In this document: positions 9,406 through 47,747 of the stretch, in pieces
Numbering within the stretch: position 1 is the stretch's first letter
Layout: every line of letters starts with the position of its first letter
Source: Paenibacillus sp. FJAT-26967
GTDB lineage: Bacteria; Bacillota; Bacilli; Paenibacillales; NBRC-103111
Direction: 5' to 3'
Length of the DNA stretch: 64,000 bases
NCBI RefSeq assembly: GCF_001541095.1
Contig: NZ_LMXH01000004.1
Span: 124,001-188,000, forward strand
Notes under the pieces: model-generated
Told to the model about the DNA's origin: nothing
What the model saw: the letters and a program-made list of their open reading frames with translations, nothing else
Database searches by the model: none
Made by a program: the position numbers and the translations under genes

Positions 9406-9442
9406 ATGATTATAAATAAAGGTTATCATCATTTATAATGAT
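9406..9442. promoter_or_regulatory. LysR-type operator palindrome
   Basis: ATGATTATAAAT (9406) and ATTTATAATGAT (9431) form a 12-base inverted repeat with one mismatch around a 13-base spacer. It lies between the divergent EamA and LysR genes. LysR regulators bind AT-rich dyads in such shared regions. Confidence 0.6.
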
Positions 9443-9488
9443 ATCAGAACGAAGAAATAGACATATCGGAAGCAGAGGAGGAGGCACC

Positions 9489-10367: not shown

Positions 10368-11211
10368 TCAATGTGAGCTCAGGACGGCAGTTAAAGCGTA
10401 CAGGAAGACGTGTTGTCCCAATGCCGCGCGTAGTGTATACCTGCAACCGGCTGTTTGGGATTTGATATAAGCCCGCTGAATATTTACCTCCATGAGGAGG
10501 GGTGTAGAGTGTCCCAATAAAAGGGAGCCGCACCTGTCCTCCATGGCTGTGGCCGGACAACTGTAAATCTACCGCTAACTGGCCGTATTCATCAGCAAAA
10601 TCGGGTTCGTGGGCAAGGAGAGTCGTACAAGCCTCCTCCGGTATATCAAGTAGAGCCTGCCGGATATTTGGTTTGCCGACCCAGGGATCATCAATACCGG
10701 CTACATAGATTGCATCCTTGCCTTTTCGTAATGCCGCGTGTTCATTATGAAGCACATGGAAACCTGCTTCTGACAACCCCCGTGTCACTGACCGACGGTT
10801 ACCAAAAGCATCATGGTTGCCCAGAATAGCCAATTGCCCAAAGGGTGCCCGCAGCTGGGAAAGCAAGGCAACTGCTTCTGGAATGTAGGCTGTTGAGTGA
10901 TCCAGGAGATCTCCGGTGAAGCAAAGGAGATCGGGCTGGATTTGCCAGACTTGTTCTACCAGCTCGGATAAATGCTCAGGTTTGGAGTCGACCCCTAGGT
11001 GTAAGTCGCTAAAATGAACGATGCGAAAGCCGTTAAAGGACGGCGGAAGCTTCGCAAGCGTAATAGTTATAGGGTTAACTTCCATCCAGTACGGTTCAAT
11101 CCAGCGTGAATAGATACCGGATAAACCGGCTGTACCCAGCAGACCTATTGTCCATTGAGCGCTCTTTCTCAGAAATTGCCGGCGGCTAATTGGTGTTGAT
11201 GTGGATAGCAT
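10336..11211 (-). CDS. Tat-exported calcineurin-like metallophosphoesterase (YkuE-like)
   Basis: I choose the ATG at 11211 (291 residues), preceded by GAACGGAGAT. The longer frame from 11286 would start inside the predicted -10 element. The N-terminus has a twin-arginine signal, SRRQFLRKSAQW, followed by a hydrophobic stretch. All metallophosphoesterase motifs are present: FSDLHLG, GDLLDH, GNHDAFG, then GHSHGGQVRLP. B. subtilis YkuE, a Tat-dependent wall-associated phosphoesterase, has the same layout. It lies downstream of a histidine kinase on the same strand but has its own promoter-like region, which resembles the one ahead of the two-component operon. It may therefore be a target of that system. 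Confidence 0.88.
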   Translation of the reverse strand: MLSTSTPISRRQFLRKSAQWTIGLLGTAGLSGIYSRWIEPYWMEVNPITITLAKLPPSFNGFRIVHFSDLHLGVDSKPEHLSELVEQVWQIQPDLLCFTGDLLDHSTAYIPEAVALLSQLRAPFGQLAILGNHDAFGNRRSVTRGLSEAGFHVLHNEHAALRKGKDAIYVAGIDDPWVGKPNIRQALLDIPEEACTTLLAHEPDFADEYGQLAVDLQLSGHSHGGQVRLPFIGTLYTPPHGGKYSAGLYQIPNSRLQVYTTRGIGTTRLPVRFNCRPELTLITLAKADLQH

Positions 11212-11266
11212 AATATCTCCGTTCTCATCAGGTGTTTGGTTTATGAAGTACAGCAGTAAATCTGTT

Positions 11267-11338
11267 CGGGCTATGAGAACAATCATAAGTTCCGTATGTT
11301 ACGTCTATATGACAGCACGAGAAAAAGACACCGCAACG
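11267..11338 (-). repeat. Copy A of a terminator-promoter repeat
   Basis: About 72 bases resemble 13562-13638 (copy B) at roughly three quarters identity by eye. An identical CGTATGTTAC core and a shared AAAAAGACACC-CAACG block stand out. Read on the minus strand the copy holds half of the kinase terminator and then promoter-like sequence leading into the phosphoesterase gene. Confidence 0.65.
11282..11302 (-). promoter_or_regulatory. Predicted promoter/operator of the Tat phosphoesterase gene
   Basis: On the minus strand GTAAC-N4-GGAAC (11302 to 11289) is followed after one base by TATGAT (11287 to 11282), a good -10. The same arrangement, GTAAC-N4-GTAAC then TAAGAT, stands before the two-component operon. 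Tandem repeats about nine to ten bases apart are typical OmpR-family operators. Confidence 0.5.
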
Positions 11339-11357
11339 AATAAGTCGCGATGCCTTT
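11322..11357 (-). terminator. Terminator of the two-component operon
   Basis: On the minus strand AAAGGCATCGC pairs with GCGGTGTCTTT (wobble pairs allowed) and runs into TTTT. The stem begins at the kinase stop codon. Confidence 0.75.
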
Positions 11358-12748
11358 TAATTATCTGGCGGAGCTGCAGGTAAGGAGAAATAAAATTCAA
11401 CTTCTCTTGTATGAACATGAAAGCCAAATTTGGAATCGTGCTTTTGCAATATCGTTCTAACAATCGATAATCCCAAGCCTGTTCCGCTAAGCAGTTTACT
11501 GCGGGAGCTCTCCAATACGTAGAATGGCTCCCAGATATTCTCCCATTGTAGGGAGTCTCCGATCTCAACCCCATTGGTAATCGTAAATAGGACTTGATTA
11601 TTCTTGTTTTCCATTGAAATCTGGATAAGCCTGTCGTTTGTGTATTTGATGGCATTGGAAATAAAATTGTTAAGGACCATGTCTATCTTCTGTTTATCTG
11701 CCTGCACCCATGGATCTGTAAGTAAACGGTCATGCACAGAAATTGTGATATCTTGCTGCTGGGTAGAGATTCGGTACTTCTGCAGAGTGTCCTGAAGCAA
11801 GAGTCTGAAATCAAAAGTGCTGATCGTATAGGAATCGGTTTGCAGTTTGGATAGCTCCAGAAGTTTATTGACCCATCTTGAAATGTCATCTGTCTGCTGC
11901 TGGATCACATCCAGATAAGTACCATCGTCCATGCCGTCCTTGATTCCCGACGAGTAAGCCTTAATCAAGGCAAGCGGGGTTTTCAGCTCGTGTGAAATAT
12001 TTGCGATAAACTCCCGCAGATTATGGTTTTTGTCCTCCAGAGCTTGATGTGCATGTTCTAATTTATCACTCATTTGATTAATGCTCCGGGCTAAAGACTC
12101 GATTTCATCATCTGTCTGAATATGGACCCTGGTGAAAGATAGATTTGAGATTTTCTCAGCAGCTTCCTGTATTTTAGCAAGCGGTTGAACAATATGCTTC
12201 GTGAACAGCCCTGATAACACGATCAGCAGCAGGAGCTGTCCCGCATAAATATAGACATTAAATTGATTGACGATTTTGAGCGTGTCTATAGAATGCGAGA
12301 TCGATTCTCCTACTACAATAAGCAGATCGTCCTTTTTCATAAAAGTAGCCAGGAAGCTTGATTTCAATTTTTCTTGATAATAAATTTTTCTGACTATGAT
12401 CTGCTCATTCAGCTTGCTAATACTTTCATCGGTTATCCAGAACTTACTCAGTGTAATCCCTTTTTTATTCAACTTATCTAGAATCATCGTGTTTAGACTG
12501 TTATTGTTTTCAGTCATTGACGTATAAACGATTGTCACACCATGCTTATTTTCAAGGTCCTCCACATGCTGAAGCAGCTGATCGGTATCCATCGTTTCAA
12601 ACTGCTCAGTTAAGACAGCAAGTGCATTCTTTTTCTGGTATAGATGGTATTTGGGTAAGAAGTAAGTATTCATTATCCATGTAAAAATAAACGTTATAAA
12701 GAACACCAGAGTAATTCGCAAAATGAATTTCTTATTTAACCTATTCAT
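11357..12748 (-). CDS. Membrane sensor histidine kinase
   Basis: 463 residues. TM1 is at about 8-28, an extracellular sensor of about 140 residues follows, and TM2 lies at about 165-185. HAMP spans about 186-240. HisKA has the phosphoacceptor H253 in ISHELKTPL. HATPase_c has the N-box NNFISNAIKYT and G2-box GTGLGLSIV. The G1 region is divergent: the usual DxGxGI is replaced by a form near NGVEIGD. It overlaps its response regulator by eight bases, so the two are translationally coupled. The stretch looks more AT-rich than its neighbours. The layout resembles VanS-like kinases with small extracellular sensors. The signal is unknown. Confidence 0.92.
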   Translation of the reverse strand: MNRLNKKFILRITLVFFITFIFTWIMNTYFLPKYHLYQKKNALAVLTEQFETMDTDQLLQHVEDLENKHGVTIVYTSMTENNNSLNTMILDKLNKKGITLSKFWITDESISKLNEQIIVRKIYYQEKLKSSFLATFMKKDDLLIVVGESISHSIDTLKIVNQFNVYIYAGQLLLLIVLSGLFTKHIVQPLAKIQEAAEKISNLSFTRVHIQTDDEIESLARSINQMSDKLEHAHQALEDKNHNLREFIANISHELKTPLALIKAYSSGIKDGMDDGTYLDVIQQQTDDISRWVNKLLELSKLQTDSYTISTFDFRLLLQDTLQKYRISTQQQDITISVHDRLLTDPWVQADKQKIDMVLNNFISNAIKYTNDRLIQISMENKNNQVLFTITNGVEIGDSLQWENIWEPFYVLESSRSKLLSGTGLGLSIVRTILQKHDSKFGFHVHTREVEFYFSLPAAPPDN

Positions 12749-13388
12749 TCGTTTCTTCCAGGCTATATCCCATACCCCTGTGTGTTTTGATTAAACGATT
12801 CCCGACTTTTACCCTTAATCTCCGGACATGTGTATCGACCGTTCTTTCTTCGCCAAAATAATCGAATCCCCAGACATGGTCCAGCAAAGCTTTTCTCGAA
12901 ATGATCCTTCCTCTATTTTCAATAAAATGTTTCATTAGATGAAATTCCTTATGGGTCGCCTGCAAATCTTCGCCATTTCTGAAAATCTTTTGCCCATCCA
13001 TATCTATCTTGAGGTTTCCTATATAGATCTGGTTATCCATCTGGAGTAAATTCTTAACCCTCAGGATCAGAATACGCGGGTCGAATGGCTTGCTCATATA
13101 TTCATCGGCACCGGTTTGCAGAGCAATCAGCTCATCTTCGACATCTCCTTTTGCCGTTAAGAGCAGCACCTTCGTGTTGCTTTGTTTTTTAATCTCCTTG
13201 CAGACCTGGATACCATTCACTTTAGGCATCATCCAATCCAGAACCGCCAAATGAATGGGATGGTTATAAAATAGATGGAGTGCTTCTTCACCATCTTGTG
13301 CGGGATATGTCGTAAAGGCTTCATTCTCAAAATAAGCCTTCAAAATCTTGAGCATAAAGGGTTCGTCATCGGCGATTAATATATTCAT
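12741..13388 (-). CDS. OmpR-family response regulator
   Basis: 215 residues. The receiver domain has the acidic pair DDE at the N-terminus, phosphoacceptor D51 in AVLDWMMP, the T in LLLTAKG and K in MSKPF. The C-terminal winged helix ends with FGEERTVDTHVRRLRVKVG and HRGMGY, typical of OmpR/PhoB. It is the first clear gene of a minus-strand operon with the histidine kinase, preceded by GAAGGAG. Its own promoter region carries a GTAAC tandem repeat suited to autoregulation. Confidence 0.95.
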   Translation of the reverse strand: MNILIADDEPFMLKILKAYFENEAFTTYPAQDGEEALHLFYNHPIHLAVLDWMMPKVNGIQVCKEIKKQSNTKVLLLTAKGDVEDELIALQTGADEYMSKPFDPRILILRVKNLLQMDNQIYIGNLKIDMDGQKIFRNGEDLQATHKEFHLMKHFIENRGRIISRKALLDHVWGFDYFGEERTVDTHVRRLRVKVGNRLIKTHRGMGYSLEETNE

Positions 13389-13416
13389 AAATCGGCTCCT
13401 TCAAAATCCTTCTTTT

Positions 13417-13512
13417 TTATTTCATACGAACATTGTTTGCAGATAATCCGTAGATAAATAGGGTGCCCACAAGAACGAAAAAACAGACGGTTAACCAAAT
13501 TGATATTCTCAT
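13417..13512 (-). CDS. Candidate small single-pass membrane peptide ahead of the response regulator
   Basis: 31 residues from the ATG at 13512 (41 from 13542, 44 from 13551). It has a basic start, one strong transmembrane helix (ISIWLTVCFFVLVGTLFIYG) and the tail LSANNVRMK. It ends 28 bases before the regulator and lies in its predicted transcript. The best ribosome site is AGGAAAGG at an over-long 11-base spacing, so translation is uncertain. Small membrane peptides next to two-component systems sometimes modulate the kinase; that role here is only a possibility. Confidence 0.3.
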   Translation of the reverse strand: MRISIWLTVCFFVLVGTLFIYGLSANNVRMK

Positions 13513-13561
13513 TGTAAGCTGAACCTTTCCTATCCTTTTCATTGAAGCCATGTACCGGATC

Positions 13562-13638
13562 CGGCCTATATGCAAGAACCATCTTAGGTTACGTATGTTA
13601 CACCAGTATGGCGGCGGGATAAAAAAGACACCACAACG
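13562..13638 (-). repeat. Copy B of the terminator-promoter repeat
   Basis: About 77 bases matching copy A at 11267-11338. Together the copies bracket the two-component operon as imperfect direct repeats about 2.3 kb apart. Confidence 0.65.
13581..13601 (-). promoter_or_regulatory. Predicted autoregulated promoter of the two-component operon
   Basis: On the minus strand GTAAC-N4-GTAAC (13601 to 13588) is followed after one base by TAAGAT (13586 to 13581) as a possible -10. Spacing is identical to the copy upstream of the Tat phosphoesterase. Confidence 0.5.
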
Positions 13639-13653
13639 TATCGTTGCAGTGTC
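13620..13653 (-). terminator. Second terminator downstream of the chemoreceptor gene
   Basis: On the minus strand GACACTGCAACG pairs with CGTTGTGGTGTC around a three-base loop (two mismatches), followed by six T. It insulates the chemoreceptor from the two-component operon. Confidence 0.75.
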
Positions 13654-13710
13654 CAGATGATGAAGAGATGCGCCTGAAGCACAAGACGGAAGGTGTCCCG
13701 AAATCTGCAT

Positions 13711-13760
13711 AAAATAAGCTTCTGAAAGATAGGAATGAAGTCACCATCTTGTCAGAAGCT
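13711..13760 (-). terminator. First terminator downstream of the chemoreceptor gene
   Basis: On the minus strand AGCTTCTGA pairs with TCAGAAGCT over a 26-base loop and runs into TATTTTAT. Confidence 0.6.
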
Positions 13761-13765
13761 CTGAT

Positions 13766-15529
13766 CTAAACTCGAATTTGTTTAACGGACTCACGCAGAC
13801 GATGCGTCATCTCGTTCAATTCTTTGGCAGAATCGGCGAAATATTGCGCGATATGAAGCTGCTGATCGGTCAGTTCACCGATCTGAAGCGTTTGGTCAGA
13901 GGTGGCTTTGGCGATGTCGGCGATTTCGATCACGGTAGCGGACACCTCTTCAGAGCTGGCGGTCATTTGCTCAGTAGAAGCAGAGATCTCGCGAATTTGC
14001 TCGCTGACAAGCCGGAACAGCTCCACTACGTTCGCGAAGGAAGTCTCGGCTTCCTCGGACAACTCAGACCCTGCACGCACTTCTTCAGAACCGCTTTTCA
14101 TCGCTTCACTGATCCGGAGCGATTCGTTCTGAATGTTATGCAGCAGGGAAGCAATCTGGCTTGTGGAATGGAAGGAATCCTCCGCCAGTTCCCTGACTTC
14201 ACTTGCAACAACGGCAAATCCGGCTCCATGCTCGCCGGCCCGCGCCGCTTCGATGGATGCGTTTAATGCAAGCAGCTTGGTCTGATTGGCAATTTCCGAT
14301 ATCGCGGCCAGAGCACCCGCAATTTCCTGAGAGTAGCCGTGCAGGCTGGTAACACGCTGGACTGTTTCTTCCGTAGCGGATGAAATGGTCCGAATTTGAT
14401 GATTCATCCGGCTTATGGTATTTCTGCCCGATTGAGCGCTATGAAGCGCATTGACGGAAGCATCGGATACCGTCAAGGAGGCTTCGGAGATTCGCTGAAG
14501 GGTACTGGCGATCTCCTCCATCGCGCGTGCGCCTTCTTCGGAATTGGTACGCTGAGTTTGCGAGCCGCCGGCAACTTGCTTGGAGGCTTCATTTACCCGT
14601 GTGTTCATCTCCAGCAAGTCCCGCGCTTCCGCAGAGAAGCGGTCGGAAGCGGTCACGAGCTGGTCGGACATTCGGGCAACGCTCGATACGATGCCGCCAA
14701 CGATCGTATTCAGGCTGCCCGACATGGTGACAATGGCCTGGTAGAGGGCCCCGACTTCATCCTGAGAGCGTACAGGGTATTCAAGAAGCTGCCGGTTCGC
14801 CTCCATGAAATTGCCTGCCGCAACGTTCTCCGCGCTGGATACGATCCGTTTCAGCGGATGGATGGCGCGAATGAGCAGCCAGACGATCAGTCCAATGCCT
14901 AGCAGTGCGAGCGATACCATGAGAATGTAGAAAGGGATACTTTCACGGATGACGCTGCTGGCAATGCTGTCGGTCACTGCGGCTTCCGTATCGATTCCGA
15001 TGACACCAAGCAAGGTTCCGTCCGGAAGTTTGACCGGTGCATAGGATGAAATATATTTGCCGTATTGCGGATTATCGATTAACGCCGAATGTGCGGTAGT
15101 CCCCTTCAGCAGATCCTGGATGGCTGCTGGAGGAATGTCCGTTACTTCATTTATGGGGGATGCGGAATCCGAATCCTTCGGCTGTCCGTCTATCATAATA
15201 AGCGGACGCCGGCTTTCGTCAATTCGTACAAAATAGACATAGAGAGCCCCGATTTGCCTGCGGAATTGATCCAGATCCTGCCGGATAGACCAATACAATT
15301 CATCCTCTTGCGGATTCGCCATGAATTGTTCCAAACGCTTGGTGTCGAGCTGGCGGGTATAGCTTTCGGCCATACGCGTCCCATAACTTGTCGTCACTTG
15401 ATTCGCTGTGGCCTTCATATTACTGATCTGTAGCCAAGTGTACCCCGCCGATAATAGGAGGATAACGATCATAACTACAAATGCAATCCGTGATGCCAAC
15501 CTCTTCCTAACCTCTGCATACCACTTCAT
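13766..15529 (-). CDS. Methyl-accepting chemotaxis protein
   Basis: 587 residues. TM1 at about 15-35; an extracellular Cache-like sensor of about 165 residues containing [35 protein letters not shown]2 at about 198-220; HAMP at about 221-275; then the signalling domain. The conserved hairpin tip is [42 protein letters not shown], and heptads continue to the C-terminus. No CheR-binding pentapeptide ends the protein. The single Cache-type sensor suggests a small-molecule ligand, not identified. AAAGGGGA lies about 13 bases before the ATG. Two tandem terminators follow, so it is its own unit. No other chemotaxis gene is in the window. Confidence 0.93.
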
Positions 15530-15738
15530 TGTTAAGTCGGTCCCCTTTATCTAGTCATAGCTGCTTCCAGAACTACATGCAATCCAATATATTATAATGA
15601 AATAACTGGATTAAGTTCTATAATAATTATCATTATTAATATTGGGTAATTAGACCTATTTTAGTTTATTTCAACGATTTAAAACAACTAAAACTTTTTG
15701 ATAAAGAGGAGCGGCGCTGATTCTATACAGTCAGGCAA

Positions 15739-16113
15739 TTAGGGGCATGGTTTCGCCCATATAAGATGTACCATATTTATCCAGTAAGTTTCTGCATTTA
15801 GGATTTTGATACCTGATTTGTGAATGAGCTCCTGGATGTTTCTCGTATGATGGCATCCGAAAGCGCGATGTAAGAGAGGATTAAGCGCTTTTTGCACAGC
15901 GGCTGCGGCCGGGTTCGTGCTCCATTGCCGTAATCTTGACTCCGGGGGGATAAAAGGGGAAGTTGGCGCCTGCACCCACAGCGAGTTCAAGCACATGGCC
16001 TTTTGCTTCACGTAAGAGATGCTGGCGCCAGCGTTTTTGTTTCGGATCTTCTCTTTGTTTTCGTACTGGGCCGCTTGTTTATCAAAGATCCGGATGAGTT
16101 TTTGTTTGTCCAT
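15739..16113 (-). pseudogene. Decayed class I SAM-dependent methyltransferase
   Basis: The N-terminus MDKQKLIRIFDKQAAQYENK has a good ribosome site (AAAGGTGG). The frame then shifts near 16045: the homologous sequence continues in another frame with LLREAKGHVLELAVGAGANF, the SAM-binding motif I, to about 15905. It returns to the first frame at NPLLHRAFGCHHTRN and the typical ending YWINMVHLIWAKP. Normal family members (UbiE/phospholipid-methyltransferase-like) are about 200 residues. Here the region between motif I and the C-terminus is missing about 80-100 residues. Two frame changes plus an internal deletion make this a pseudogene. The continuous 124-residue frame is not a functional enzyme. 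Confidence 0.75.
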
Positions 16114-38808: not shown

Positions 38809-39217
38809 AGCCGCTCACACCTTTCTGGTTTGCGGGATTTCTGCAGAGCTGCCGATTGCGCCCGAAATGATGAATCTCTACGTCAAAGGCGGGTAACCGT
38901 TTCTTATAAGTATTACCCAGATTAACCCCGTATGTCCCTTCCCTCCTATCTGCTTCCTTCTCATTGAAACAAATCTATCGTGGGGTTCATTATGTAAGTT
39001 TATATTCGCGCGAGGCTGTACAACACCTGTCGATTAGAGTCGAACAAGGAGGAAGTTTATCATAATTTAATCTGGAAATTTGCCTATAAAGCCACAAATG
39101 TTTTGCTTTAATTTGTGACTTTATGGCAATATTAAGAAGTAGAATTATTTGTAAAGGTACATGAATCTAGTATGCAGAAAAGGAATGGAGTTCCATTCCG
39201 TTCAGGGAAGTGATAGG
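38809..39217. other. Leader region of the exopolysaccharide operon
   Basis: About 400 bases between divergent genes. The only structure seen is the inverted repeat at 39086-39124. No riboswitch was recognised. Confidence 0.4.
39086..39124. promoter_or_regulatory. Inverted repeat upstream of the exopolysaccharide operon
   Basis: ATAAAGCCACAAAT pairs with ATTTGTGACTTTAT (one mismatch) around an 11-base spacer, about 95 bases before the first gene. It could be an operator or an RNA hairpin. Confidence 0.4.
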
Positions 39218-40360
39218 TTGAATAAACGCACGTTCTTAGCGATTGGCGTCGTTTTGTGTCTGATCGGAATTGTCATCTATAAACAGGCGGGAGGGCCCAT
39301 AGCTACCCCGGAAGTGAGGACTAGTCCTGTGAAGCCGGATGGAAAAATCAAGGGCATGCAACCGGAGCAGCAAGAGGTGTATGATTTCATCAAGGCCCGG
39401 ATGAAGGGCCCTTTCGGCGTATACACCAACTATCAGGACACGGAACAGTCCCGTGAAGTGGCGACGGGGCACGAAGTGCTGAGCGAATCGGCTTCACTGC
39501 TGATGCGGGTATATGCACATTCCCAAGATCAGCCTTCCTTCGATCAGGAATGGACAACCGCGAAGCAGACCTTTGACCTTAAGCACGGCTTCAGCTACCG
39601 CTACAGCCCCAAGCTGGACAAGCGATATCCGCTCAACGCGGCTGTGGACGATTTACGGATCATCCGGGCGCTGTATGAGGCGGGCGAAGCTTTTGGAGAC
39701 GTGTCCTACACTAAGGAAGCAGATCAATATGGACAGCGTTTCTATGCAACGAATGTGAAGGACAATCTTCTCTACGATTTCTATGATGAAACGTATAACA
39801 TCACGAATCCTTTCATTACGCTGTGCTACATCGATCTCCGGACACTGGGGCAGCTGCCGATTGAGTCGCGGCAGAAACAGAAGCTTCTGAACGGGATGAA
39901 GGCCGTGATTCACAACGGATATTTGTCCGACAGCTTTCCTTTCTATGAAACCAGGTTTCAGTACAATACCAATTCGTATACTTCCGAGAAAATCCAAACG
40001 GTAGAGTCCCTTTTGACCATTCTCCATTTGGCGGAGGCGGGCGAGACTAAACCGGCCAGTATCGCTTATATCAAGGAGCATGTGCAGGCAGGAACTTTGT
40101 ACGGGCAATATTCAAAGGAGGGCAAGCCGGCAACGGATGTCCAGTCTACGGCGATATACGCGATCACGGCCATGATCGGTGCCGAGATCGGCGATGCGTC
40201 CCTTTATCAAGACAGTATACGGAGAATGAACGCGTACCAGGTCAAGAATCCGGGCAGTCCGCTGTATGGAGGGTTCGGGGATACTTCTGCGAATCAGGCG
40301 TATTCTTTCGACAACCTGATGGCGTTACTTGCTTACACGTATGATTCAGAACGAAGGTGA
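39218..40360 (+). CDS. YdaJ-like glycoside hydrolase (GH8-type) of the exopolysaccharide operon
   Basis: 380 residues from a TTG at 39218, seven bases after GGGAAG; a frame from 39161 lacks a ribosome site. An N-terminal transmembrane anchor (TFLAIGVVLCLIGIVIY) precedes an alpha/alpha-barrel enzyme. GHEVLSESASLLMRVYA has the Glu position of GH8 enzymes, and NAAVDDLRIIRALYEAG carries the Asp. B. subtilis YdaJ and BcsZ of cellulose operons play the matching role, trimming polymer during secretion. First gene of a six-gene operon; the next start overlaps or abuts its stop. Confidence 0.82.
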   Translation: MNKRTFLAIGVVLCLIGIVIYKQAGGPIATPEVRTSPVKPDGKIKGMQPEQQEVYDFIKARMKGPFGVYTNYQDTEQSREVATGHEVLSESASLLMRVYAHSQDQPSFDQEWTTAKQTFDLKHGFSYRYSPKLDKRYPLNAAVDDLRIIRALYEAGEAFGDVSYTKEADQYGQRFYATNVKDNLLYDFYDETYNITNPFITLCYIDLRTLGQLPIESRQKQKLLNGMKAVIHNGYLSDSFPFYETRFQYNTNSYTSEKIQTVESLLTILHLAEAGETKPASIAYIKEHVQAGTLYGQYSKEGKPATDVQSTAIYAITAMIGAEIGDASLYQDSIRRMNAYQVKNPGSPLYGGFGDTSANQAYSFDNLMALLAYTYDSERR

Positions 40361-40365
40361 ACGGG

Positions 40366-41922
40366 ATGACAGATAACCGGTCGGTACGACAGCTTCTGGT
40401 GAAGGGATGGCTGCTGTTGTACCGGTATGTTTCACCGGCGCTGCTGGCGGTAATCGGCGTTCTGCTGATCACCGGTTATGCCTTATTCACGCCTCCGTAT
40501 ATCGGCATGGCGGATAATGGAGACTACTTCCGCAGTATATACAGCGCCGGGCTTTATTTTAATCTGCCGGACTATGACAGCCATCACTTTGGGCATTTTG
40601 TGAGGCAGTACGGCATCTTCCAATATTTTAATGAAAACGGCTCGATGGTTATCTCATCTCAGACTTTGTTTATCAAAGCGGCTATGCTGCTGAATCAGCT
40701 GTTGTTTGACTCGGCTGTGTTCGATATTCGCTTTCAGGGCATCATCTTCACTTTGCTATTCGCTGCTGCGGTCTATCTGGTCGTGGAGAGCTTAACTTGG
40801 AAGATTCCCCGGAAGCAGGGATATATCATCGCGCTGCTGGCTGTGTTCATGTTCGGCGATACCGGCTACACCGCTTACTTTAATTCTTTTTATGGCGAGA
40901 GCATTGTGTTCATTATGATGCTGTTTGTTTTTGCCTCCTGGCTCCTGATTTACCGCAAACGGTACAACGATTATGCGCTGCTGGCTGTGTTTGTAATCAG
41001 TTCCCTGCTTCTGACCACGTCCAAACAGCAGAACGCTCCTGTCGGGCTGATTGTAGCGGTAATGGCGCTGTCGCTGCTCTGGATCCGGAGGGACCGCATC
41101 TTCCGGGTTCTGACTGTAGGGTCGCTGGCTGTGTTATTCCTGTCAGGCGTAGCTACCTATGCTCTGATTTCCAAGGAATTTGTGAATATCAACCAGTATC
41201 ATGCAATGACGAGGGGGGTACTTATGCAGTCCCCTAACCCCGAAGAAACATTGAAGACTTTCGGAATTAATGAGCAGTTCGCTATTCTCAAAGGCAATAT
41301 TTATTACGAACGCTATACGACCGTCGATGTGGACTCGCCTCTACTGGAGAAGCATTTTTACAGCCAGTATGGATTTGTCCCGATCTTAAAGTACTATGTA
41401 ACACACCCGGATAAGCTCAGTTCTATGCTGAATGTGGCCGCTAAGGACGCTTTTACGATCCGGCCGCCTGCTATGGGCAATTATGAAGCTTCAGCGGGTA
41501 AAGCTTTTGGTGAGCATACCGGCTTCTTCTCGGCTTACAGCCTGATTAAGAAAGCTCTGTCTCCCAAAACTTACGGGTTCATCATCATCTGGATTGCTCT
41601 AGTAGTCGGACTGTACATGCCTTCGTTTATTGAAGCCGTTAAATTAAGGAATTTCAGGCTTGCACAAAGGATGATACTCATTCTAACGATGATTTTGTGC
41701 GGGCTGTCGGGTATCCTCGTCTCGATTATAGGCGCGGGGGATGCTGACCTGGCTAAACACGAATTCTTGTTTACGGTAGCTTTCGATATCGTGACGTTCT
41801 TGACTCTATCGGATATCATCAGCCGCCGTTTAATGCGCCATCATGATACCGGTGAGCAAGACGATAACGGACCAGAAGTCAAAGAGGGTGTGAGACCGCT
41901 TGTTGAAACTAAAAGCGTTTAG
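40366..41922 (+). CDS. Multi-pass membrane protein, probable GT-C hexosyltransferase (WsfD-like)
   Basis: 518 residues from the ATG at 40366, after GAAGGTGA; a GTG at 40357 is an alternative. About eleven helices. The first extracytoplasmic loop has MADNGDYFRSIYSAGL, an acidic motif placed as in GT-C glycosyltransferases, which use lipid-linked sugars. Paenibacillus proteins of this type are often named WsfD after an S-layer glycan gene of Geobacillus; I recall this from family naming and cannot confirm it here. B. subtilis ydaJKLMN has no counterpart, so this gene may add a side-chain sugar to the polymer. It overlaps the next gene by 23 bases. Confidence 0.7.
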   Translation: MTDNRSVRQLLVKGWLLLYRYVSPALLAVIGVLLITGYALFTPPYIGMADNGDYFRSIYSAGLYFNLPDYDSHHFGHFVRQYGIFQYFNENGSMVISSQTLFIKAAMLLNQLLFDSAVFDIRFQGIIFTLLFAAAVYLVVESLTWKIPRKQGYIIALLAVFMFGDTGYTAYFNSFYGESIVFIMMLFVFASWLLIYRKRYNDYALLAVFVISSLLLTTSKQQNAPVGLIVAVMALSLLWIRRDRIFRVLTVGSLAVLFLSGVATYALISKEFVNINQYHAMTRGVLMQSPNPEETLKTFGINEQFAILKGNIYYERYTTVDVDSPLLEKHFYSQYGFVPILKYYVTHPDKLSSMLNVAAKDAFTIRPPAMGNYEASAGKAFGEHTGFFSAYSLIKKALSPKTYGFIIIWIALVVGLYMPSFIEAVKLRNFRLAQRMILILTMILCGLSGILVSIIGAGDADLAKHEFLFTVAFDIVTFLTLSDIISRRLMRHHDTGEQDDNGPEVKEGVRPLVETKSV

Positions 41923-43441
41923 AATCGGGCTGCTGGTCACCTTGGTGTGCACGCTGCTGCTTCCCGTTTCCCCGGTTCTAGCTGCGGGAGAGCAGAAGAC
42001 GGCTCAGGTTCTTCTTCTATACGACAGTTTGGCCAAAGGGACACCCAGAGAAGGAAATGTAACCATCCTCCAGCGTTTGCTGGCTTCTTACCGGGTTCAG
42101 GTCCGGACCTTGAGTATAGATCAGTATAAACCCGGCACCATGAGTACCCACACCAAAGTCATTACAGTCATGAATGCCTTCGACCTGAAGCCGGTCAATG
42201 AAGACTATCTGCAAGACTTGGCGGCCTACGAGGCGGATTATCTTCATGTCGGAGCTAATCCGCCGCAGCGGATTCAGGAGAAGCTGAACCTTGTTACGGA
42301 GAGCAGGAGGCAAGAAACGATTCAACTGAATATGCCGCCATACTCCCAGACGGGCATTCAGGTGCAGGACTTCATTGCGCTGAAGGAGACAGCACGGGAA
42401 AATGCCGCCGGTACGATTACATCCATGAGCAGCAAGCGCCAGACGCCCTTCAGCACGCAGGAGGGGCCGTATGCGTATGTGCCTTATTTTGAACAGGGGA
42501 ATCTGAGCGAACTGGCCATGGCTTCTGTTTTGAAAAAATGGCTTGGAATCGAGACGCCCGCTCAAACGTTCCTGGTCTTCAAAGAAGTGTATCCGTTCTC
42601 TGACCTGGAGCTTCTGGAAGAGACGGCCGACCGCTTCTATGAGGCGGGAATCCCCTTTGCGGTCAGTATCCGCCCTGTTTTCTCCAATACGGATTTCCCG
42701 GCGATGAAGAGGTATTTGGAAGCGCTGAAATATGTCCAGTCCAAGAACGGGACCATTCTCGTGAACGCACCAGTCGTGTACGGGCAGGGTCCGATGCTGG
42801 ACGTCAAGATGGCAGGATTTATTTCCGTATTGGCGCAGAACGGTCTGGCGCCGCTTGGGATCGGTGCGGAGCTGTACTGGTCCTATGACAATGAGTACAC
42901 TATTGCGGGATTGGGCTACTTCGATTCGGCCGTGCTGTTTCCGGATGAGAAACCTCTGTATACCGAGAGGACGGACACATCCAAGTCGTTCTCTTCTTCT
43001 TTGTACAGTATCAAGATGGAGCAGCTGCAGCATTTGGACAGGCCCGAGAATGCCCTTCCCGTATTCCCGATGGATACTGCCGTCACCTACAATTTTTTTG
43101 AGAATAAGGAAGAACTCCAGGAGGCCGTTCTGCTCCTTAAGGATTCACGGATTCCTTTTGCCGATTACAAGAGCGGGGAGCACCGGGTCACGACAGATGA
43201 ATTTAAGATTGCCTCGAGGGACGGGGTCATTACCATTAACGGCAACCGGCTGAATTTGAACTACACGCCTCAAAGTGTAAGCGACAAGTACGAATATGAG
43301 AAGCGGGTGGAGCAGAGTCTGACGGGTGCTTTTAATATTCAGAACAAAATTTTTATTGCCCTTATTATCGTGTCTCTGATTATTTTCGGCGGCTTCTTGA
43401 TTGCCGGGTATCGCTTATACAAGAGAAAATATTTGAAGTAA
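41900..43441 (+). CDS. YdaL-like DUF2334 protein
   Basis: 513 residues from a TTG at 41900 with GAGGGTG upstream. Signal peptide FRIGLLVTLVCTLLLPVSPVLA, then an extracytoplasmic region with a DUF2334 polysaccharide-deacetylase-like domain: VFKEVYPFSDLELLEETADRFYEAGIPFAVSIRPVF and YVQSKNGTILVNAPV. The classical deacetylase metal triad D-H-H is not complete, since the usual H is absent in this stretch. A C-terminal transmembrane helix (IFIALIIVSLIIFGGFLIAGY) anchors it. The position between hydrolase and synthase genes matches B. subtilis ydaL. It probably modifies or guides the polymer outside the membrane. Confidence 0.82.
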   Translation: MLKLKAFRIGLLVTLVCTLLLPVSPVLAAGEQKTAQVLLLYDSLAKGTPREGNVTILQRLLASYRVQVRTLSIDQYKPGTMSTHTKVITVMNAFDLKPVNEDYLQDLAAYEADYLHVGANPPQRIQEKLNLVTESRRQETIQLNMPPYSQTGIQVQDFIALKETARENAAGTITSMSSKRQTPFSTQEGPYAYVPYFEQGNLSELAMASVLKKWLGIETPAQTFLVFKEVYPFSDLELLEETADRFYEAGIPFAVSIRPVFSNTDFPAMKRYLEALKYVQSKNGTILVNAPVVYGQGPMLDVKMAGFISVLAQNGLAPLGIGAELYWSYDNEYTIAGLGYFDSAVLFPDEKPLYTERTDTSKSFSSSLYSIKMEQLQHLDRPENALPVFPMDTAVTYNFFENKEELQEAVLLLKDSRIPFADYKSGEHRVTTDEFKIASRDGVITINGNRLNLNYTPQSVSDKYEYEKRVEQSLTGAFNIQNKIFIALIIVSLIIFGGFLIAGYRLYKRKYLK

Positions 43442-43451
43442 GGAGAATCAC

Positions 43452-44702
43452 ATGACACTTGCAGATTATTTCATGGTCATAGCGGTTTTGTGCATCTGGT
43501 CCCTTCTGCTAGTGAATGTAGTCCTGATTATTGCCGGATACTTCTATTACATCCAGTGTGAGAAAGAAGCGATCCCGGAGATCAAGGGAGAAGAGCCCTT
43601 CGTCACCATCATGGTACCTGCCCACAACGAAGGGAAGGTGATCAGCCAGACGGTGGAGGCTCTCCTCGACTTTGATTATCCGCATGACCGGTATGAGATT
43701 ATTGTCATCAATGATAATTCTTCGGACAATAGCGCGGAGCTGCTCGGAAATCTTCAGAGGAAGAATCCCGGCCGCAACCTGATGATCATTAACACGGACT
43801 CTGTAACGGGCGGCAAAGGGAAGTCCAATGCTTTGAATCTGGGGTTTGCGCAGAGCAAAGGCGAACTCATTGCAATCTATGACGCGGATAATACCCCGGA
43901 AAGAAAAGCGCTGCGGTATCTCGTCGGCGAGATTACCAACGACGACTCGCTTGGAGCGGTCATAGGCAAATTCCGCACCCGCAACCGGGATGTGAATCTG
44001 CTGACGCGTTTTATCAATATCGAGACGTTATCGTTTCAATGGATGGCTCAAGCCGGGCGCTGGAAGCTATTCAAGCTGTGTACCATCCCGGGTACGAACT
44101 TTATTATGCGGCGGCATATTGTCGAGAGCATCGGGGGATGGGATGTGAAGGCGATTGCCGAGGATACGGAAATCAGCTTCCGCATTTACATGATGGGTTA
44201 CCGGATTAAATTTCAGCCGCAGGCGGTGACATGGGAGCAGGAGCCGCAGACGGTTAAGGTCTGGTTCAAACAGAGGACCCGCTGGGCCAAGGGGAACATC
44301 TACGTGATCGTAAAGAACGCCCGCTTGCTGTTCCACCCGTCGGCCAAGAGAATCCGGTTTGATATTCTTTATTTTCTATCGATTTATTTCCTGCTTCTGA
44401 CCTCGCTGATCACATCAGACATCCTGCTTATCCTTAATGCGCTGGGCTACGTACATACTACGATTGCCGGGTTCAGTACGTTCTTGTGGCTGCTTGCCAT
44501 TACGCTCTTCGTAGTGGGCACCTACGTCACATTAACGACGGAAAAAGGGGAAATGAATCTGTCCAATCTGTGGATCATCCTCCTCATGTATGTATCCTAC
44601 TGCCAGATGTGGATGGTCGTTGCCGCTTACGGGCTGTACAACTATTTCAAGGATCTGATTTTCTCCAGGGAAGTCAAATGGTATAAAACAGAGCGTTACT
44701 AA
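43452..44702 (+). CDS. YdaM-like processive family 2 glycosyltransferase (polysaccharide synthase)
   Basis: 416 residues. One N-terminal helix, the GT2 catalytic domain (about 45-290) and three or more C-terminal helices. PAHNEGKVI opens the nucleotide-sugar site. D144-A-D146 binds the metal, E237-D238 in AEDTE is the catalytic base region, and Q274-R-T-R-W278 is the QxxRW motif of processive synthases such as BcsA and hyaluronan synthase. No PilZ domain is present, so c-di-GMP must act through another protein, presumably the receptor at the end of the operon. It overlaps the following gene or abuts it (TAATG). Confidence 0.92.
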   Translation: MTLADYFMVIAVLCIWSLLLVNVVLIIAGYFYYIQCEKEAIPEIKGEEPFVTIMVPAHNEGKVISQTVEALLDFDYPHDRYEIIVINDNSSDNSAELLGNLQRKNPGRNLMIINTDSVTGGKGKSNALNLGFAQSKGELIAIYDADNTPERKALRYLVGEITNDDSLGAVIGKFRTRNRDVNLLTRFINIETLSFQWMAQAGRWKLFKLCTIPGTNFIMRRHIVESIGGWDVKAIAEDTEISFRIYMMGYRIKFQPQAVTWEQEPQTVKVWFKQRTRWAKGNIYVIVKNARLLFHPSAKRIRFDILYFLSIYFLLLTSLITSDILLILNALGYVHTTIAGFSTFLWLLAITLFVVGTYVTLTTEKGEMNLSNLWIILLMYVSYCQMWMVVAAYGLYNYFKDLIFSREVKWYKTERY

Positions 44703-44719
44703 TGGGGGATATAAACGAA

Positions 44720-46825
44720 ATGAAACAGAGAAGAAATCAGGTGATGACAGTGAGAAAAGGAACTATATTCTTACTCCTATTCCTTTGCATCATGAGCAGC
44801 GGCCAAGGTGCGGCCGCTGCTCCGGCAGACGAAGCGCGCTTGTATCAGACTCCGTTTGCCCAGAACGGGACGGCCTTATCCGGTGTTATGGGTTCGAAGC
44901 AAATGTATTTTCAAATTCTCGATTACTGGGACCTAACCGAAGTGAAGCTGAGTCTCGATTATCAGATGTCACCTCTGGCGAAGGATCTGAATTCGAGCAT
45001 TACACTCTCGGTCAACGGGAGTCCTTTTCACTCCTTCCGGCCCGCAGCGGCGAATGCTCAGAAGCAGAACCTTGCGGTTACGGTGCCCAAGGAGCTTCTC
45101 ACCAAAGGGCTGAACACGCTGAAGGTGGAAGGTTACATCCGGACGGAGGATAATCTGGTCTGTCCGTCCGATCAGACGCCGGATCAATGGCTGCAGCTGT
45201 ACAAGACGTCCGGAATCGATGTGCGCTATACACAGAAGGCCATGCAGGGAGCCATCCAGGATTTTAACCAGCGGTTCACAGGCCTGGATACGGTGAGTGC
45301 AGGCCGCAGTCTCATTGCGGTTCCGGACAAAAGCGAGCCGGCTGAGCTTGAAGCCGCCGTATACGCTCTCTCCGGCTTCGCTAAATCCAACTCCGTGAAC
45401 GACAAAGATATACCGATTCTGCCTTACCGGGCAGACAATCTGAAGGATCGTGAAGCGGTCGTGCTCATCGCTCTGCATGACCGGCTGCCGGCCGAAGTCA
45501 AGGGCCTGCTGAGCAAGCAGGACTTTAATACGAAGGCGCTGATTCAGCTCGTGAGCAAGGAGACGCAGCCGACTCTGGTCATCACCTCGCAGAATCCCGA
45601 GCTGCTTGCCAAGGCGGGGCGCCTGGTGGCGAACCAGCCTCTGATGGGGCAATTGAGCAGCGACATCAAGGTAGTGGATGACAGCACGGATGTAACGACG
45701 CCGGTTGTGCCTGTCAGCACGCGCATTAACTTCACGGAGAAGGGGGACGAGCTCAAAGGGCCGGGCCATCAGGAACAGACTTATTTTGTGACATTGCCTG
45801 CCAACAGGTCCATTGCGGATGCGGGTCAAATCAGCCTGGATTTCCGCTATGCCCAGAACCTGGATTTTAACCGCTCTCTGGTTACGGTCTCCATCAACAA
45901 CACGCCTATCGGCAGCAAGAAGCTGACGAAAGAGCTGGCCAATGGGGACACGGCGCACTTCGCCATTCCGGCGGATCTGGCTGTGAACGGGAACTTCTCC
46001 GTTGCCATCGAATTCGATCTGGAGCTGGAGGATGCCGCTTGTACCCGCAATGGCGACGAAATGCCGTGGGCGTTCATCACGAAGGACACCCTGATTGATT
46101 TTAAGACCAAAGACCGCAACGATCTGCTGTTCAATAATTATCCGCATCCATTCTTGAGGGATGGTGTGTTTAATCAAGTGGCGGTGGTTATTCCGGAGGA
46201 ACGCGATAATTATACGTACCGGACCGTCTCCAACCTGTTCAATCTGTTAGGCAAGTATACGAGTGGCAACACCGGTGATGTAAAGTTCTACAAGGAATCA
46301 GCAGGGGCCGATGAACTTAAAGAGCGCAATATTATTGCAGTCGGCACCTATCTGGACAATAAGCTCATCCGCGATAATAACAAGAACCTGTATTTCAAGT
46401 ATGACTCCGCAGGTTCGACCTTCCTGTCCAATGAGAAAATGAGCATTGACTCCGAGTACGGCAAATGGATCGGAACCTTGCAGCTGCTGCCGTCGCCTTT
46501 CCAGTCCGGCAACGGATTCCTGGCTGTGACGGGTACTCAGGCGGAGAATTATTACCTCGTTTCCAAACTGATTGCAACCGAGAATTCAATCTGGAAAGTA
46601 TACGGGGACGGGGTCGTAACGGATAAGGACGGGAACGTGAATGCCCACCGGTTCAAAAAGGAAACCGCGGCCGAAGATTCGTCTCTGCTCGAAGATATCG
46701 TAAAACGCGGGGACGTTGTAGGCTTTCTCACCGCCCTCGTTCTAGTTGCGGGGCTTGCTTTGGTATCGCTCGTCCTGTTGGTTCGCAAACACAGGAAGAA
46801 AAGAGGTGGAGAGGGTGAAGCATAA
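44720..46825 (+). CDS. YdaN/BcsB-like exopolysaccharide co-synthase protein
   Basis: About 701 residues. I prefer the ATG at 44720, nine bases after GGGGGAT; the ATG at 44702, overlapping the previous stop, is the alternative. A signal peptide ends near GAAAAPADE. The long extracytoplasmic part has two BcsB-like carbohydrate-binding jelly rolls (KLSLDYQMSPLAKDLNSSITLSVNG, then ISLDFRYAQNLDFNRSLVTVSINN) alternating with flavodoxin-like domains. One C-terminal helix (FLTALVLVAGLALVSLVLLV) and a basic tail anchor it. It would couple to the YdaM synthase as BcsB does to BcsA. It overlaps the receptor gene by 11 bases. Confidence 0.88.
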   Translation: MKQRRNQVMTVRKGTIFLLLFLCIMSSGQGAAAAPADEARLYQTPFAQNGTALSGVMGSKQMYFQILDYWDLTEVKLSLDYQMSPLAKDLNSSITLSVNGSPFHSFRPAAANAQKQNLAVTVPKELLTKGLNTLKVEGYIRTEDNLVCPSDQTPDQWLQLYKTSGIDVRYTQKAMQGAIQDFNQRFTGLDTVSAGRSLIAVPDKSEPAELEAAVYALSGFAKSNSVNDKDIPILPYRADNLKDREAVVLIALHDRLPAEVKGLLSKQDFNTKALIQLVSKETQPTLVITSQNPELLAKAGRLVANQPLMGQLSSDIKVVDDSTDVTTPVVPVSTRINFTEKGDELKGPGHQEQTYFVTLPANRSIADAGQISLDFRYAQNLDFNRSLVTVSINNTPIGSKKLTKELANGDTAHFAIPADLAVNGNFSVAIEFDLELEDAACTRNGDEMPWAFITKDTLIDFKTKDRNDLLFNNYPHPFLRDGVFNQVAVVIPEERDNYTYRTVSNLFNLLGKYTSGNTGDVKFYKESAGADELKERNIIAVGTYLDNKLIRDNNKNLYFKYDSAGSTFLSNEKMSIDSEYGKWIGTLQLLPSPFQSGNGFLAVTGTQAENYYLVSKLIATENSIWKVYGDGVVTDKDGNVNAHRFKKETAAEDSSLLEDIVKRGDVVGFLTALVLVAGLALVSLVLLVRKHRKKRGGEGEA

Positions 46826-47669
46826 CCGCAGCAGCTTGACTTCAGATCTCGCCTTCTTAGGGCTTCTTATTCTGTGTAACCTGTGTGTGGCCTTTACGGC
46901 AGGCGATCCGAATAAATTGATGCAGAACCTTGTCTTTCTGAATCTGGCCTTTTTCTTCGCGGTAGTGACTTATTTTACAACCGTAACGACGGGTCTGCTT
47001 TTGAATGTTGTGTTCATTTTCGGCTACGGCCTTTTCATTATGTACCAGACGATTTCACAGGGTGAAACGATTGGGCTGCAAACGTATTTCTGGCTGATCA
47101 TGACTCCGCTGCTTACCGTGATGATCTGGCTGTTCTCGCTGGCGGCACGTCAGCTTCAGGATGAGAACGAGGAGCTGCGTAAGCAGAAGGCAAGACTGGC
47201 TACCCTGGATGAAAGAACGGACCTGAAGAACAGCCTTGCTTTCCGCAAGGACGCGGCCGTATTCTCCGGTATTTCAACGCGCTATGACATTCCTCTGACG
47301 CTCTTGGTCATTAAGGTGAAGTACTGGAATGAAATCCGCCGTCTGATCGGGGATGAGCAGCTGGCGGAAGCGATCTATGACGTGTCCCAGATCAGCCAAG
47401 CGAGTATCCGTACGAATGACGCTCTCTATTTGCTCGACAAAGAAGAGGCTACATGGGGACTGCTGCTGTTTACGGACAAGGATGGAGCCAAGATTGTGAT
47501 GGAAAGAATCAAACTCAGCCTTGTGGAATTTAACCGGCAGGAATTCGCCAGTAAATATAAGGTCGATTTGAGTCTGAAAATGGGAGCCGTCCAGTACCGG
47601 GAGGATATTATCGAGTCTCCGCTCGACTTCATCGTACAGGCCCAAAAACAGCTGGAATTCGATGTGTAG
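46815..47669 (+). CDS. YdaK-like degenerate-GGDEF c-di-GMP receptor
   Basis: 284 residues from the GTG at 46815, after GAGGTGG; B. subtilis YdaK is almost the same length. Four transmembrane helices fill about 12-115. A coiled linker (ARQLQDENEELRKQKARLATLDERTDL) leads to a GGDEF-fold domain. The signature is lost: the GGDEF position reads DKEEA (208-212). The inhibitory-site motif survives five residues earlier as R199-T-N-D202, the RxxD that binds c-di-GMP. So it should bind but not make the messenger, activating the synthase as YdaK and Listeria PssE do. Last gene of the operon, before a terminator. Confidence 0.88.
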   Translation: MKHNRSSLTSDLAFLGLLILCNLCVAFTAGDPNKLMQNLVFLNLAFFFAVVTYFTTVTTGLLLNVVFIFGYGLFIMYQTISQGETIGLQTYFWLIMTPLLTVMIWLFSLAARQLQDENEELRKQKARLATLDERTDLKNSLAFRKDAAVFSGISTRYDIPLTLLVIKVKYWNEIRRLIGDEQLAEAIYDVSQISQASIRTNDALYLLDKEEATWGLLLFTDKDGAKIVMERIKLSLVEFNRQEFASKYKVDLSLKMGAVQYREDIIESPLDFIVQAQKQLEFDV

Positions 47670-47714
47670 GCTGAAGTTAACTGCCTTGAACGAGTATTAT
47701 GAATGATCCATCAG

Positions 47715-47747
47715 GCACTGGGGCCATCGGGCTCCGGTGCTTTTTTT
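47715..47747 (+). terminator. Terminator of the exopolysaccharide operon
   Basis: GCACTGG pairs with CCGGTGC (one wobble) over a GC-rich loop, followed by seven T. Confidence 0.85.

What the first reader, a model, noticed from the sequence alone, without database searches (positions are those of the whole stretch)
39218..47669. c-di-GMP-controlled exopolysaccharide operon with an extra WsfD-like glycosyltransferase
Five genes match B. subtilis ydaJKLMN and Listeria pss, ending in a degenerate-GGDEF receptor that keeps RxxD (199-202) five residues before DKEEA. The sixth, a polytopic GT-C-like protein at 40366, is not in the model operons and suggests a polymer with a lipid-linked sugar decoration. 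The gene order also differs, with the receptor last.
Basis: partly seen in the sequence, partly recalled or inferred. Interest (0 to 1): 0.65.

Follow-up and report, generated by a model that had tools for sequence, protein, structure and literature searches.

The report
Listeria-type c-di-GMP exopolysaccharide operon (pss)
A Paenibacillus-type genome carries the same signal-controlled slime-polymer operon known from Listeria, and the supposed extra sugar-transferase gene is the counterpart of Listeria pssA, which probably hangs the side sugars on the polymer.

Summary
The six genes are real, co-directional and tightly packed, and the receptor keeps its I-site while its GGDEF motif is lost. 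The 'extra' GT-C gene at 40357/40366 is not extra: in L. monocytogenes (genome identified by a 100% PssZ match) the operon reads WsfD-YdaL-GT2-BcsB-receptor, which is pssA-E, and its first protein is 45% identical to the window's. The receptor-last order is also the Listeria order; only B. subtilis yda differs. What Listeria lacks at this place is the first gene, a GH126 glycosidase related to PssZ, which Listeria keeps elsewhere. In the Bacilli loci read there are two operon types: receptor second without WsfD (33 loci, none with WsfD), and with WsfD, receptor last with few exceptions. The WsfD model resembles GT-C transferases that use polyprenyl-linked sugars, and 15 of 75 loci have a GtrB-like lipid-sugar synthase directly beside the operon. 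Most likely it adds the alpha-1,6-hexose branch to a beta-1,4-ManNAc chain, as known chemically for Listeria Pss. That step is inferred, not shown. An ordinary member of a known kind, with a useful functional proposal for pssA.

The parts
39161..40360 (+). GH126 glycosidase-like protein (YdaJ / PssZ relative), operon gene 1
   Evidence: phmmer 3REN 2.9e-51 and 6R2M (Listeria PssZ) 6e-13, with the LSES and DDLRI stretches aligned; only a weak Pfam GH8 hit
40357..41922 (+). WsfD-family GT-C-like polytopic protein, ortholog of Listeria pssA (GTG 40357 or ATG 40366 start)
   Evidence: NF051875 602 bits; 45% identity over 484 aa to L. monocytogenes L309:5598-7073; operon clade in tree 100/98; GT-C fold match
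40510..40527 (+). ADNGDY motif (residues 52-57) in the predicted first outer loop; D56 is the candidate catalytic acid
   Evidence: D56 in 58 of 59 family rows, the other row a gap there; D53 is N in 6 of 59
41900..43441 (+). YdaL / PssB-like protein (weak DUF2334)
   Evidence: PF10096 5.5e-4, under cut-off; relative at the same place in Listeria-type L307, 32% over 512 aa
43452..44702 (+). GT2 polymerase (YdaM / PssC)
   Evidence: PF13641 6.3e-31; 74-77% identity to the 9 Listeria-genus proteins fetched; median 48% in 34 loci of the group without WsfD
44702..46825 (+). BcsB-like subunit (YdaN / PssD)
   Evidence: PF03170 1.5e-45; 38-40% to the Listeria-genus proteins
46815..47669 (+). Membrane receptor with degenerate GGDEF domain (YdaK / PssE)
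   Evidence: PF00990 4e-8; model matches c-di-GMP-bound GGDEF 3IGN, Z 19.5
47409..47420 (+). I-site RTND (residues 199-202 of the 284-aa receptor)
   Evidence: RxxD at this place in 73 of 73 aligned receptors including the window's; in 16 of 20 of G250's order
47436..47450 (+). Degenerate active-site motif DKEEA (residues 208-212)
   Evidence: GG(D/E)EF in 0 of 73 and 0 of 60 further receptors
47713..47742 (+). Terminator-like hairpin after the receptor gene
   Evidence: 13-pair stem with T run; consensus scan only (14 found in the region, 9.2 expected)

Best explanation
This is a complete pss-type operon, in effect pssZ-pssA-pssB-pssC-pssD-pssE. By homology, c-di-GMP binds the I-site of the membrane receptor (PssE/YdaK) and switches on the GT2/BcsB-like synthase (PssC/PssD), which makes and exports a beta-1,4-linked N-acetylhexosamine chain, most likely ManNAc. 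The WsfD/PssA protein takes single hexoses from a polyprenyl-phosphate carrier, loaded by a GtrB-like GT2 encoded elsewhere in this genome, and adds them as side branches (probably alpha-1,6) on the outer face. The GH126 protein trims or releases the polymer. Shown here: gene content, orthology, conserved I-site, lost GGDEF, GT-C-like model, GtrB next to some operons. Inferred: ligand binding, sugar identities, linkage, side of the membrane and direction of transfer.
For: Operon identity: J-W-L-M-N-K in 68 of 75 WsfD-seeded loci. In a BcsB-seeded sample of the window's order, 34 of the 45 genomes with BcsB (of 119) have WsfD on the same contig 4-5 kb away, judged by coordinates. Listeria: G581 carries a protein 100% identical over 254 aa to L. 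monocytogenes PssZ of 6R2M (organism from PMC7479077, passage), and its operon L309 is W-L-M-N-K with RTSD at 199 and DKDDA at 208, as published for Lmo0531 (PMC4125290, passages). Third gene GT2 and fourth BcsB-like match the published PssC and PssD, so the first, W, is PssA by position. It scores 564.6 bits in NF051875 and is 45% identical to the window's. Polymer: Pss is beta-1,4-ManNAc with alpha-1,6-Gal on every other ManNAc (PMC11439720, passage), and the window's GT2 is 74-77% identical to the Listeria-genus GT2s. GT-C: model pTM 0.84; VIA Z 13.7 to Pmt4 and PglB, 13.2 to ArnT, rows spanning residues 14-497. Lipid donor: GtrB-like GT2 directly beside the operon in 15 of 75 W-type loci (two of the 15, L059 and L084, are one strain) and in 0 of 33 JKLMN loci, also beside WsfD in the separate lineage L147. 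Among 23 stand-alone WsfD loci, 6 have GtrB and GtrA neighbours (L097, L264, L266, L269, L270, L274) and L100 has GtrB alone. P. alvei WsfD/WsfH are described as the putative alpha-1,6-Glc-to-ManNAc pair (PMC2943079, passages). Receptor: RxxD 73 of 73, GGDEF 0 of 73.
Against: No direct evidence of c-di-GMP binding, polymer or sugar. RxxD is missing at the I-site in 4 of 20 receptors of W-type operons in G250's order (L318, L323, L324, L326), so c-di-GMP control is not universal in the type. The P. alvei assignment is itself called putative, and that protein is only 25% identical over a 144-aa piece. 60 of 75 WsfD-seeded loci, all 20 fetched loci of G250's order and the window have no GtrB beside the operon; the window's genome has one full-length GtrB-like GT2, an orphan on another contig without GtrA. 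Foldseek alone gave no E of 0.001 or less, and Z near 13 is about the level that mostly helical models can reach without clear kinship (note). Residues 72-94 of the model are poorly predicted.
Confidence: 0.75

Rival explanations
1. The operon and its regulation are as described, but WsfD/PssA is not a branch transferase on the EPS: it is a structural or co-polymerase membrane subunit that this type of synthase needs.
For: Wherever the Listeria-type synthase (GT2 at least 62% identical to the window's in the loci compared) was read, WsfD was beside it, as an integral subunit would be.
Against: Stand-alone WsfD relatives next to GtrB/GtrA, conserved acidic outer-loop motif, GT-C match to sugar transferases, branched Pss structure in Listeria. 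Related J-K-L-M-N operons do without it.
Confidence: 0.15
2. WsfD uses the lipid-linked sugar on another envelope polymer (lipoteichoic acid or S-layer glycan) and shares the operon only for co-expression.
For: Stand-alone WsfD relatives lie next to a 630-667-aa five-helix gene in four loci, a sulfatase-family LtaS-like protein in the one tested (L259), and the P. alvei S-layer cluster has a WsfD.
Against: Operon WsfD copies lie together on one side of a branch apart from those copies (36 of 36 rows; 32 of 32) and stay in the operon across several families and in a Clostridium.
Confidence: 0.08
3. One reading: the GT-C gene is an addition to the yda/pss operon, not found in the model operons, that creates a new decorated polymer.
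For: B. subtilis has none (no NF051875 match in the 14 control genomes).
Against: The same gene opens the Listeria pss operon and is in 20 of 20 fetched loci of G250's order.
Confidence: 0.02

Closest known systems
Listeria monocytogenes pssA-E (lmo0527-0531) with pssZ
   Same: Five of six genes in the same order with the receptor last; same I-site and degenerate DKxxA motif; WsfD-family first protein; GT2 74-77% identical
   Different: The window has a GH126 gene at the front of the operon; Listeria has its GH126 gene far away (G581 C1 near 1.98 Mb against 0.59 Mb for the operon). [quoted passage not shown]
Bacillus subtilis ydaJKLMN
   Same: J, receptor K, L, GT2 M and BcsB-like N are all present in loci of this type; YdaK needs its I-site (PMC5422440, PMC7064775 passages)
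   Different: Receptor second, no WsfD; GT2 median 48% identical to the window's in 34 loci of the group without WsfD (B. subtilis itself was not aligned)
Paenibacillus alvei WsfD/WsfH of the S-layer glycan cluster
   Same: Same NCBIfam family and ADNGD motif; proposed lipid-linked hexose transfer onto ManNAc
   Different: 25% identity over 144 aa of one piece; no synthase or receptor genes of this operon beside it; the draft copy is broken
GtrA/GtrB/GT-C three-component glycosylation systems
   Same: GtrB-like GT2 beside 15 of 75 operon loci; GT-C-like transferase
   Different: GtrA was not searched for in the 75 loci; in the window the GtrB-like gene is elsewhere and has no GtrA neighbour

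Membership tests
Pss/Yda c-di-GMP-controlled exopolysaccharide operon | Co-directional GT2 synthase, BcsB-like subunit and degenerate-GGDEF membrane receptor | tested here: met
Pss/Yda c-di-GMP-controlled exopolysaccharide operon | Receptor keeps RxxD I-site and has lost GG(D/E)EF | tested here: met
   Window RTND/DKEEA; 73 of 73 and 0 of 73 in its alignment; elsewhere RxxD 7 of 7, 33 of 33 and 16 of 20
Pss/Yda c-di-GMP-controlled exopolysaccharide operon | c-di-GMP binding switches on polymer synthesis | not testable with these tools
   Published for PssE and YdaK (PMC4125290, PMC5422440 passages); not for this protein
Listeria-type pss (W-L-M-N-K order) | WsfD/PssA before PssB, receptor last | tested here: met
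B. subtilis-type yda (J-K-L-M-N order) | Receptor second, no WsfD | tested here: not met
   contrast with 33 JKLMN loci
NCBIfam NF051875 glycan_WsfD | Score above curated cut-off over the full model | tested here: met
   602 bits against 80, positions 1-451 of 452
GT-C glycosyltransferase | GT-C transmembrane fold | tested here: met
   Model Z 13.7/13.2 to PglB, Pmt4, ArnT, rows spanning residues 14-497; Foldseek E 0.016 at best, so by structure comparison of a prediction only
GT-C glycosyltransferase | Catalytic acid in first outer loop | tested here: inconclusive
   D56 in 58 of 59 rows, one gap; its place after the first membrane helix fits, role not tested
GT-C glycosyltransferase | Uses polyprenyl-phosphate sugar donor | not testable with these tools
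   Only context: GtrB beside 15 of 75 operon loci
GH126 glycosidase | Sequence relation to CPF_2247 and PssZ | tested here: met
   2.9e-51 and 6e-13

The most novel reading that the evidence does not exclude
PssA, a Listeria gene for which I found no assigned function in the papers searched, and its operon-bound WsfD relatives are the transferases that hang single hexoses from a polyprenyl carrier onto a c-di-GMP-controlled ManNAc polymer. Gram-positive operons of this kind then fall into a decorated type (WsfD present, receptor usually last) and an undecorated type (B. subtilis yda).
Probability: 0.6. Interest if true: 0.5.

Novelty: new member of a known kind. Interest (0 to 1): 0.4.

Why it matters
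It turns a claimed oddity into a simple rule: operons that carry the WsfD/PssA gene should make a branched polymer, those without it an unbranched one. That gives a direct test for who adds the galactose of the Listeria biofilm polymer and predicts the chemistry of an unstudied Paenibacillus slime.

Tried and rejected
Rejected: 'extra gene' (Listeria locus); 'GH8' label for gene 1 (GH126 relatives); a known RNA element such as a riboswitch upstream (no Rfam match in the window at gathering score). WsfD against PDB sequences: single-sequence search gave only four weak ion-channel chains (E 0.23 and up), the profile search none at E up to 1.

Led nowhere: a class-wide draw of 398 genomes held no genome with a near-identical PssZ (best 43%); the order of G085 had only 5 genomes. 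Paper searches that gave no functional assignment of PssA or of a Paenibacillus operon of this kind that I saw: WsfD (10 papers, one on topic), Paenibacillus + c-di-GMP + exopolysaccharide + degenerate GGDEF (122 with 3 of 4 terms, 20 listed), Paenibacillus + ydaM + exopolysaccharide (0), lmo0527 (2), pssA + Listeria monocytogenes + exopolysaccharide + galactosyltransferase (32 with 3 of 4 terms, 12 listed), Listeria + PssA-D (11 with 4 of 5 terms, 10 listed), ydaJKLMN/pssABCDE (4). I saw listings and, for the papers named with 'passages', passages; section 11 of PMC4125290 was read; no paper was read whole. Koseoglu et al. 2015, cited by these papers for the Pss structure, was not among those found, so a prior assignment cannot be excluded.

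Weak points of counts: the 75 WsfD-seeded loci were found by the WsfD protein itself, so their operon rate is biased; L059 and L084 are one strain. 34 of 45 rests on coordinates from two searches; besides the window, 6 of those 34 were fetched as regions. The unnamed samples overlap each other and the named loci (G316 and G002 give the same WsfD coordinates; G067's contig has the length of L028's), so they are not independent. Of 42 BcsB genomes in G250's order, 20 were fetched. Of the 32 BcsB genomes of the class sample, the 31 other than the window's were fetched: 6 JWLMNK, 1 GtrB-W-K-L-M-N-J, 22 JKLMN (4 with L under my threshold), 1 J-K-L-M with N under threshold (L170), 1 BcsB alone (L166). 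The 33 JKLMN loci are those 22, L170 and 10 of the 11 order loci without WsfD (L249 is not of this kind). In the tree L269 was labelled 'other'; one search shows it has GtrB and GtrA. This does not touch the operon group.

Full report
What is there. Six same-strand genes lie at 39161-47669, closely spaced or overlapping, followed by a terminator-like hairpin at 47713-47742 (consensus scan only). In order they are a GH126-like glycosidase, a WsfD-family polytopic protein, a YdaL/PssB-like protein, a GT2 synthase, a BcsB-like subunit and a membrane receptor with a degenerate GGDEF domain. The nearest named relative is Paenibacillus lutrae, 97% in WsfD, with the same operon.

The receptor. With the GTG start at 46815 the I-site RTND is at 199-202 and DKEEA at 208-212. 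In 73 aligned receptors (window included) RxxD is kept in 73 and GG(D/E)EF in none. In further receptors RxxD is kept in 7 of 7 W-type loci of the class sample, 33 of 33 JKLMN loci and 16 of 20 loci of G250's order; L318, L323, L324 and L326 lack it; GG(D/E)EF is in none of these 60. The AlphaFold2 model is modest overall (pTM 0.51), but its GGDEF part matches solved GGDEF domains, one with c-di-GMP bound (3IGN, Z 19.5, rmsd 2.4 over 154 residues). Binding itself is published for PssE and YdaK (PMC4125290 and PMC7064775, passages seen), not for this protein.

The 'extra' gene is pssA. It is absent from B. subtilis: the NCBIfam model NF051875 matched none of 14 control genomes, B. subtilis being one of them. 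For Listeria I searched BcsB in the order of G250 (42 of 395 genomes) and fetched 20 loci. Nine loci of one genus (f71 g178) read WsfD-YdaL-GT2-BcsB-receptor. The genus was identified by PssZ: one genome, G581, carries a protein 100% identical over 254 residues to the L. monocytogenes PssZ of PDB 6R2M, and the nine range from 48 to 100%. The G581 receptor has RTSD at 199 and DKDDA at 208, as published for Lmo0531. The published operon is lmo0527-0531, pssA-E, with GT2 PssC third, BcsB-like PssD fourth and the receptor last (PMC4125290). So the first gene, pssA, is the WsfD gene: 564.6 bits to NF051875, 45% identity over 484 residues to the window's protein. The receptor-last order is therefore the Listeria order.

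Two operon types. J is GH126, W WsfD, L YdaL, M GT2, N BcsB-like, K receptor. WsfD-seeded: 68 of 75 J-W-L-M-N-K, 2 W-L-M-N-K, 3 shorter (J-W-L-M-N, J-W-L-M, J-W-L; short contigs), 1 J-W-L-M-N-K-N-K (Clostridium minihomine), 1 W-K-M (P. humicus). BcsB-seeded, class sample: 32 of 299 genomes, 31 regions read: 6 J-W-L-M-N-K, 1 GtrB-W-K-L-M-N-J, 22 J-K-L-M-N, 1 J-K-L-M with N under threshold, 1 BcsB alone. BcsB-seeded, window's order: 45 of 119; by coordinates 34 have WsfD nearby; of the 11 that do not, 10 are J-K-L-M-N and 1 is different. Order of G250: of 20 read, 9 W-L-M-N-K, 10 J-W-L-M-N-K, 1 W-L-M-N-K-J. WsfD was found in none of the 33 J-K-L-M-N loci. The window's GT2 is 74-77% identical to those of the nine Listeria-genus loci but 28-52% (median 48%) to those of 34 loci in the group without WsfD, so the types differ in the synthase too. 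L147 (54%) is in between.

What WsfD does. The 521-residue model has pTM 0.84. Foldseek gave no match at E 0.001 or less (best 0.016, a translocon entry that I take to match through its oligosaccharyltransferase chain). The structural aligner gave Z 13.7 to Pmt4 and PglB, 13.2 to ArnT and 12.5 to ALG3; the listed rows at Z 8 or more are GT-C-type entries such as OST, PMT, ArnT, Emb and ALG, one being the GPI transamidase complex, whose chain I take to be a GT-C-like subunit from memory. The tool warns that mostly helical models can reach about 13 without clear kinship. The outer-loop motif ADNGD is a family signature: D56 in 58 of 59 rows, D53 replaced by N in 6. A full-length GtrB-like GT2 lies directly beside the operon in 15 of 75 W-type loci: 10 upstream and 3 downstream on the same strand, 2 divergent upstream (L059 and L084 are one strain); in none of the 33 J-K-L-M-N loci; in none of the 20 loci of G250's order; and beside WsfD in the lineage L147. 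Among 23 stand-alone WsfD loci, 6 have GtrB and GtrA beside WsfD, 1 GtrB only, and 4 a 630-667-aa five-helix neighbour, shown to be a sulfatase-family LtaS-like protein in the one case tested. In trees the operon copies form one side of a well-supported branch (36 of 36 rows, 100/99; 32 of 32 rows, 100/98, all 200 bootstrap trees). In P. alvei, WsfD and WsfH are described as a putative lipid-linked route that puts alpha-1,6-Glc on ManNAc (PMC2943079, passages). Listeria Pss is beta-1,4-ManNAc with alpha-1,6-Gal on every other ManNAc (PMC11439720, passage). The parsimonious reading is that WsfD/PssA adds the alpha-1,6-hexose branch.

Limits. The window's genome has one NF051875 protein, this one, and one full-length GtrB-like GT2, an orphan in L109:7633-8640 (contig C12) without GtrA. 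Which sugar is added is unknown. I saw no functional assignment of PssA in the searches made, but the 2015 paper cited for the Pss structure was not among the papers found.

Noticed in passing
window 4496-6904: MHYT-PAS-GGDEF-EAL protein, a possible c-di-GMP turnover enzyme on the same contig as the operon; the genome has 16 GGDEF matches besides the receptor, this one included.
   Followed up: no
L147 (G085), around 7600-16020: GtrB-WsfD-receptor-YdaL-GT2-BcsB-...-GH126 on one strand: a separate lineage with the lipid-sugar synthase beside WsfD and the receptor right after it.
   Followed up: partly
L097 9931-12952; L264, L266, L269, L270, L274: Stand-alone WsfD with GtrB and GtrA neighbours, which suggests WsfD as a GtrC-like component.
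   Followed up: partly
L259, L260, L261, L263: WsfD relatives next to a 630-667-aa five-helix gene, LtaS-like where tested (L259): possible lipoteichoic acid glycosylation.
   Followed up: partly
L318, L323, L324, L326 (G250's order): Receptors of W-type operons that lack RxxD at the I-site as well as GGDEF; they may have lost c-di-GMP control or sense something else.
   Followed up: no
L098 9033-10500: The wsfD of the P. alvei DSM 29 S-layer glycan cluster is broken in this draft assembly, and neighbouring genes look split too, so it may be sequence error.
   Followed up: no
L081 14362-20351: Clostridium minihomine has a second BcsB-receptor pair in tandem after the operon.
   Followed up: no
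L326: An extra 275-aa ORF lies between the GT2 and BcsB genes of an otherwise standard operon.
   Followed up: no
genomes g3 of family f2: Many carry a PssZ-like GH126 protein although no BcsB was found in those listed; its role there is unclear.
   Followed up: no
literature, PMC13274460 (passage): The first yda gene of B. subtilis is called a glycosyltransferase there, whereas its counterpart in this operon is a GH126 glycosidase relative.
   Followed up: no
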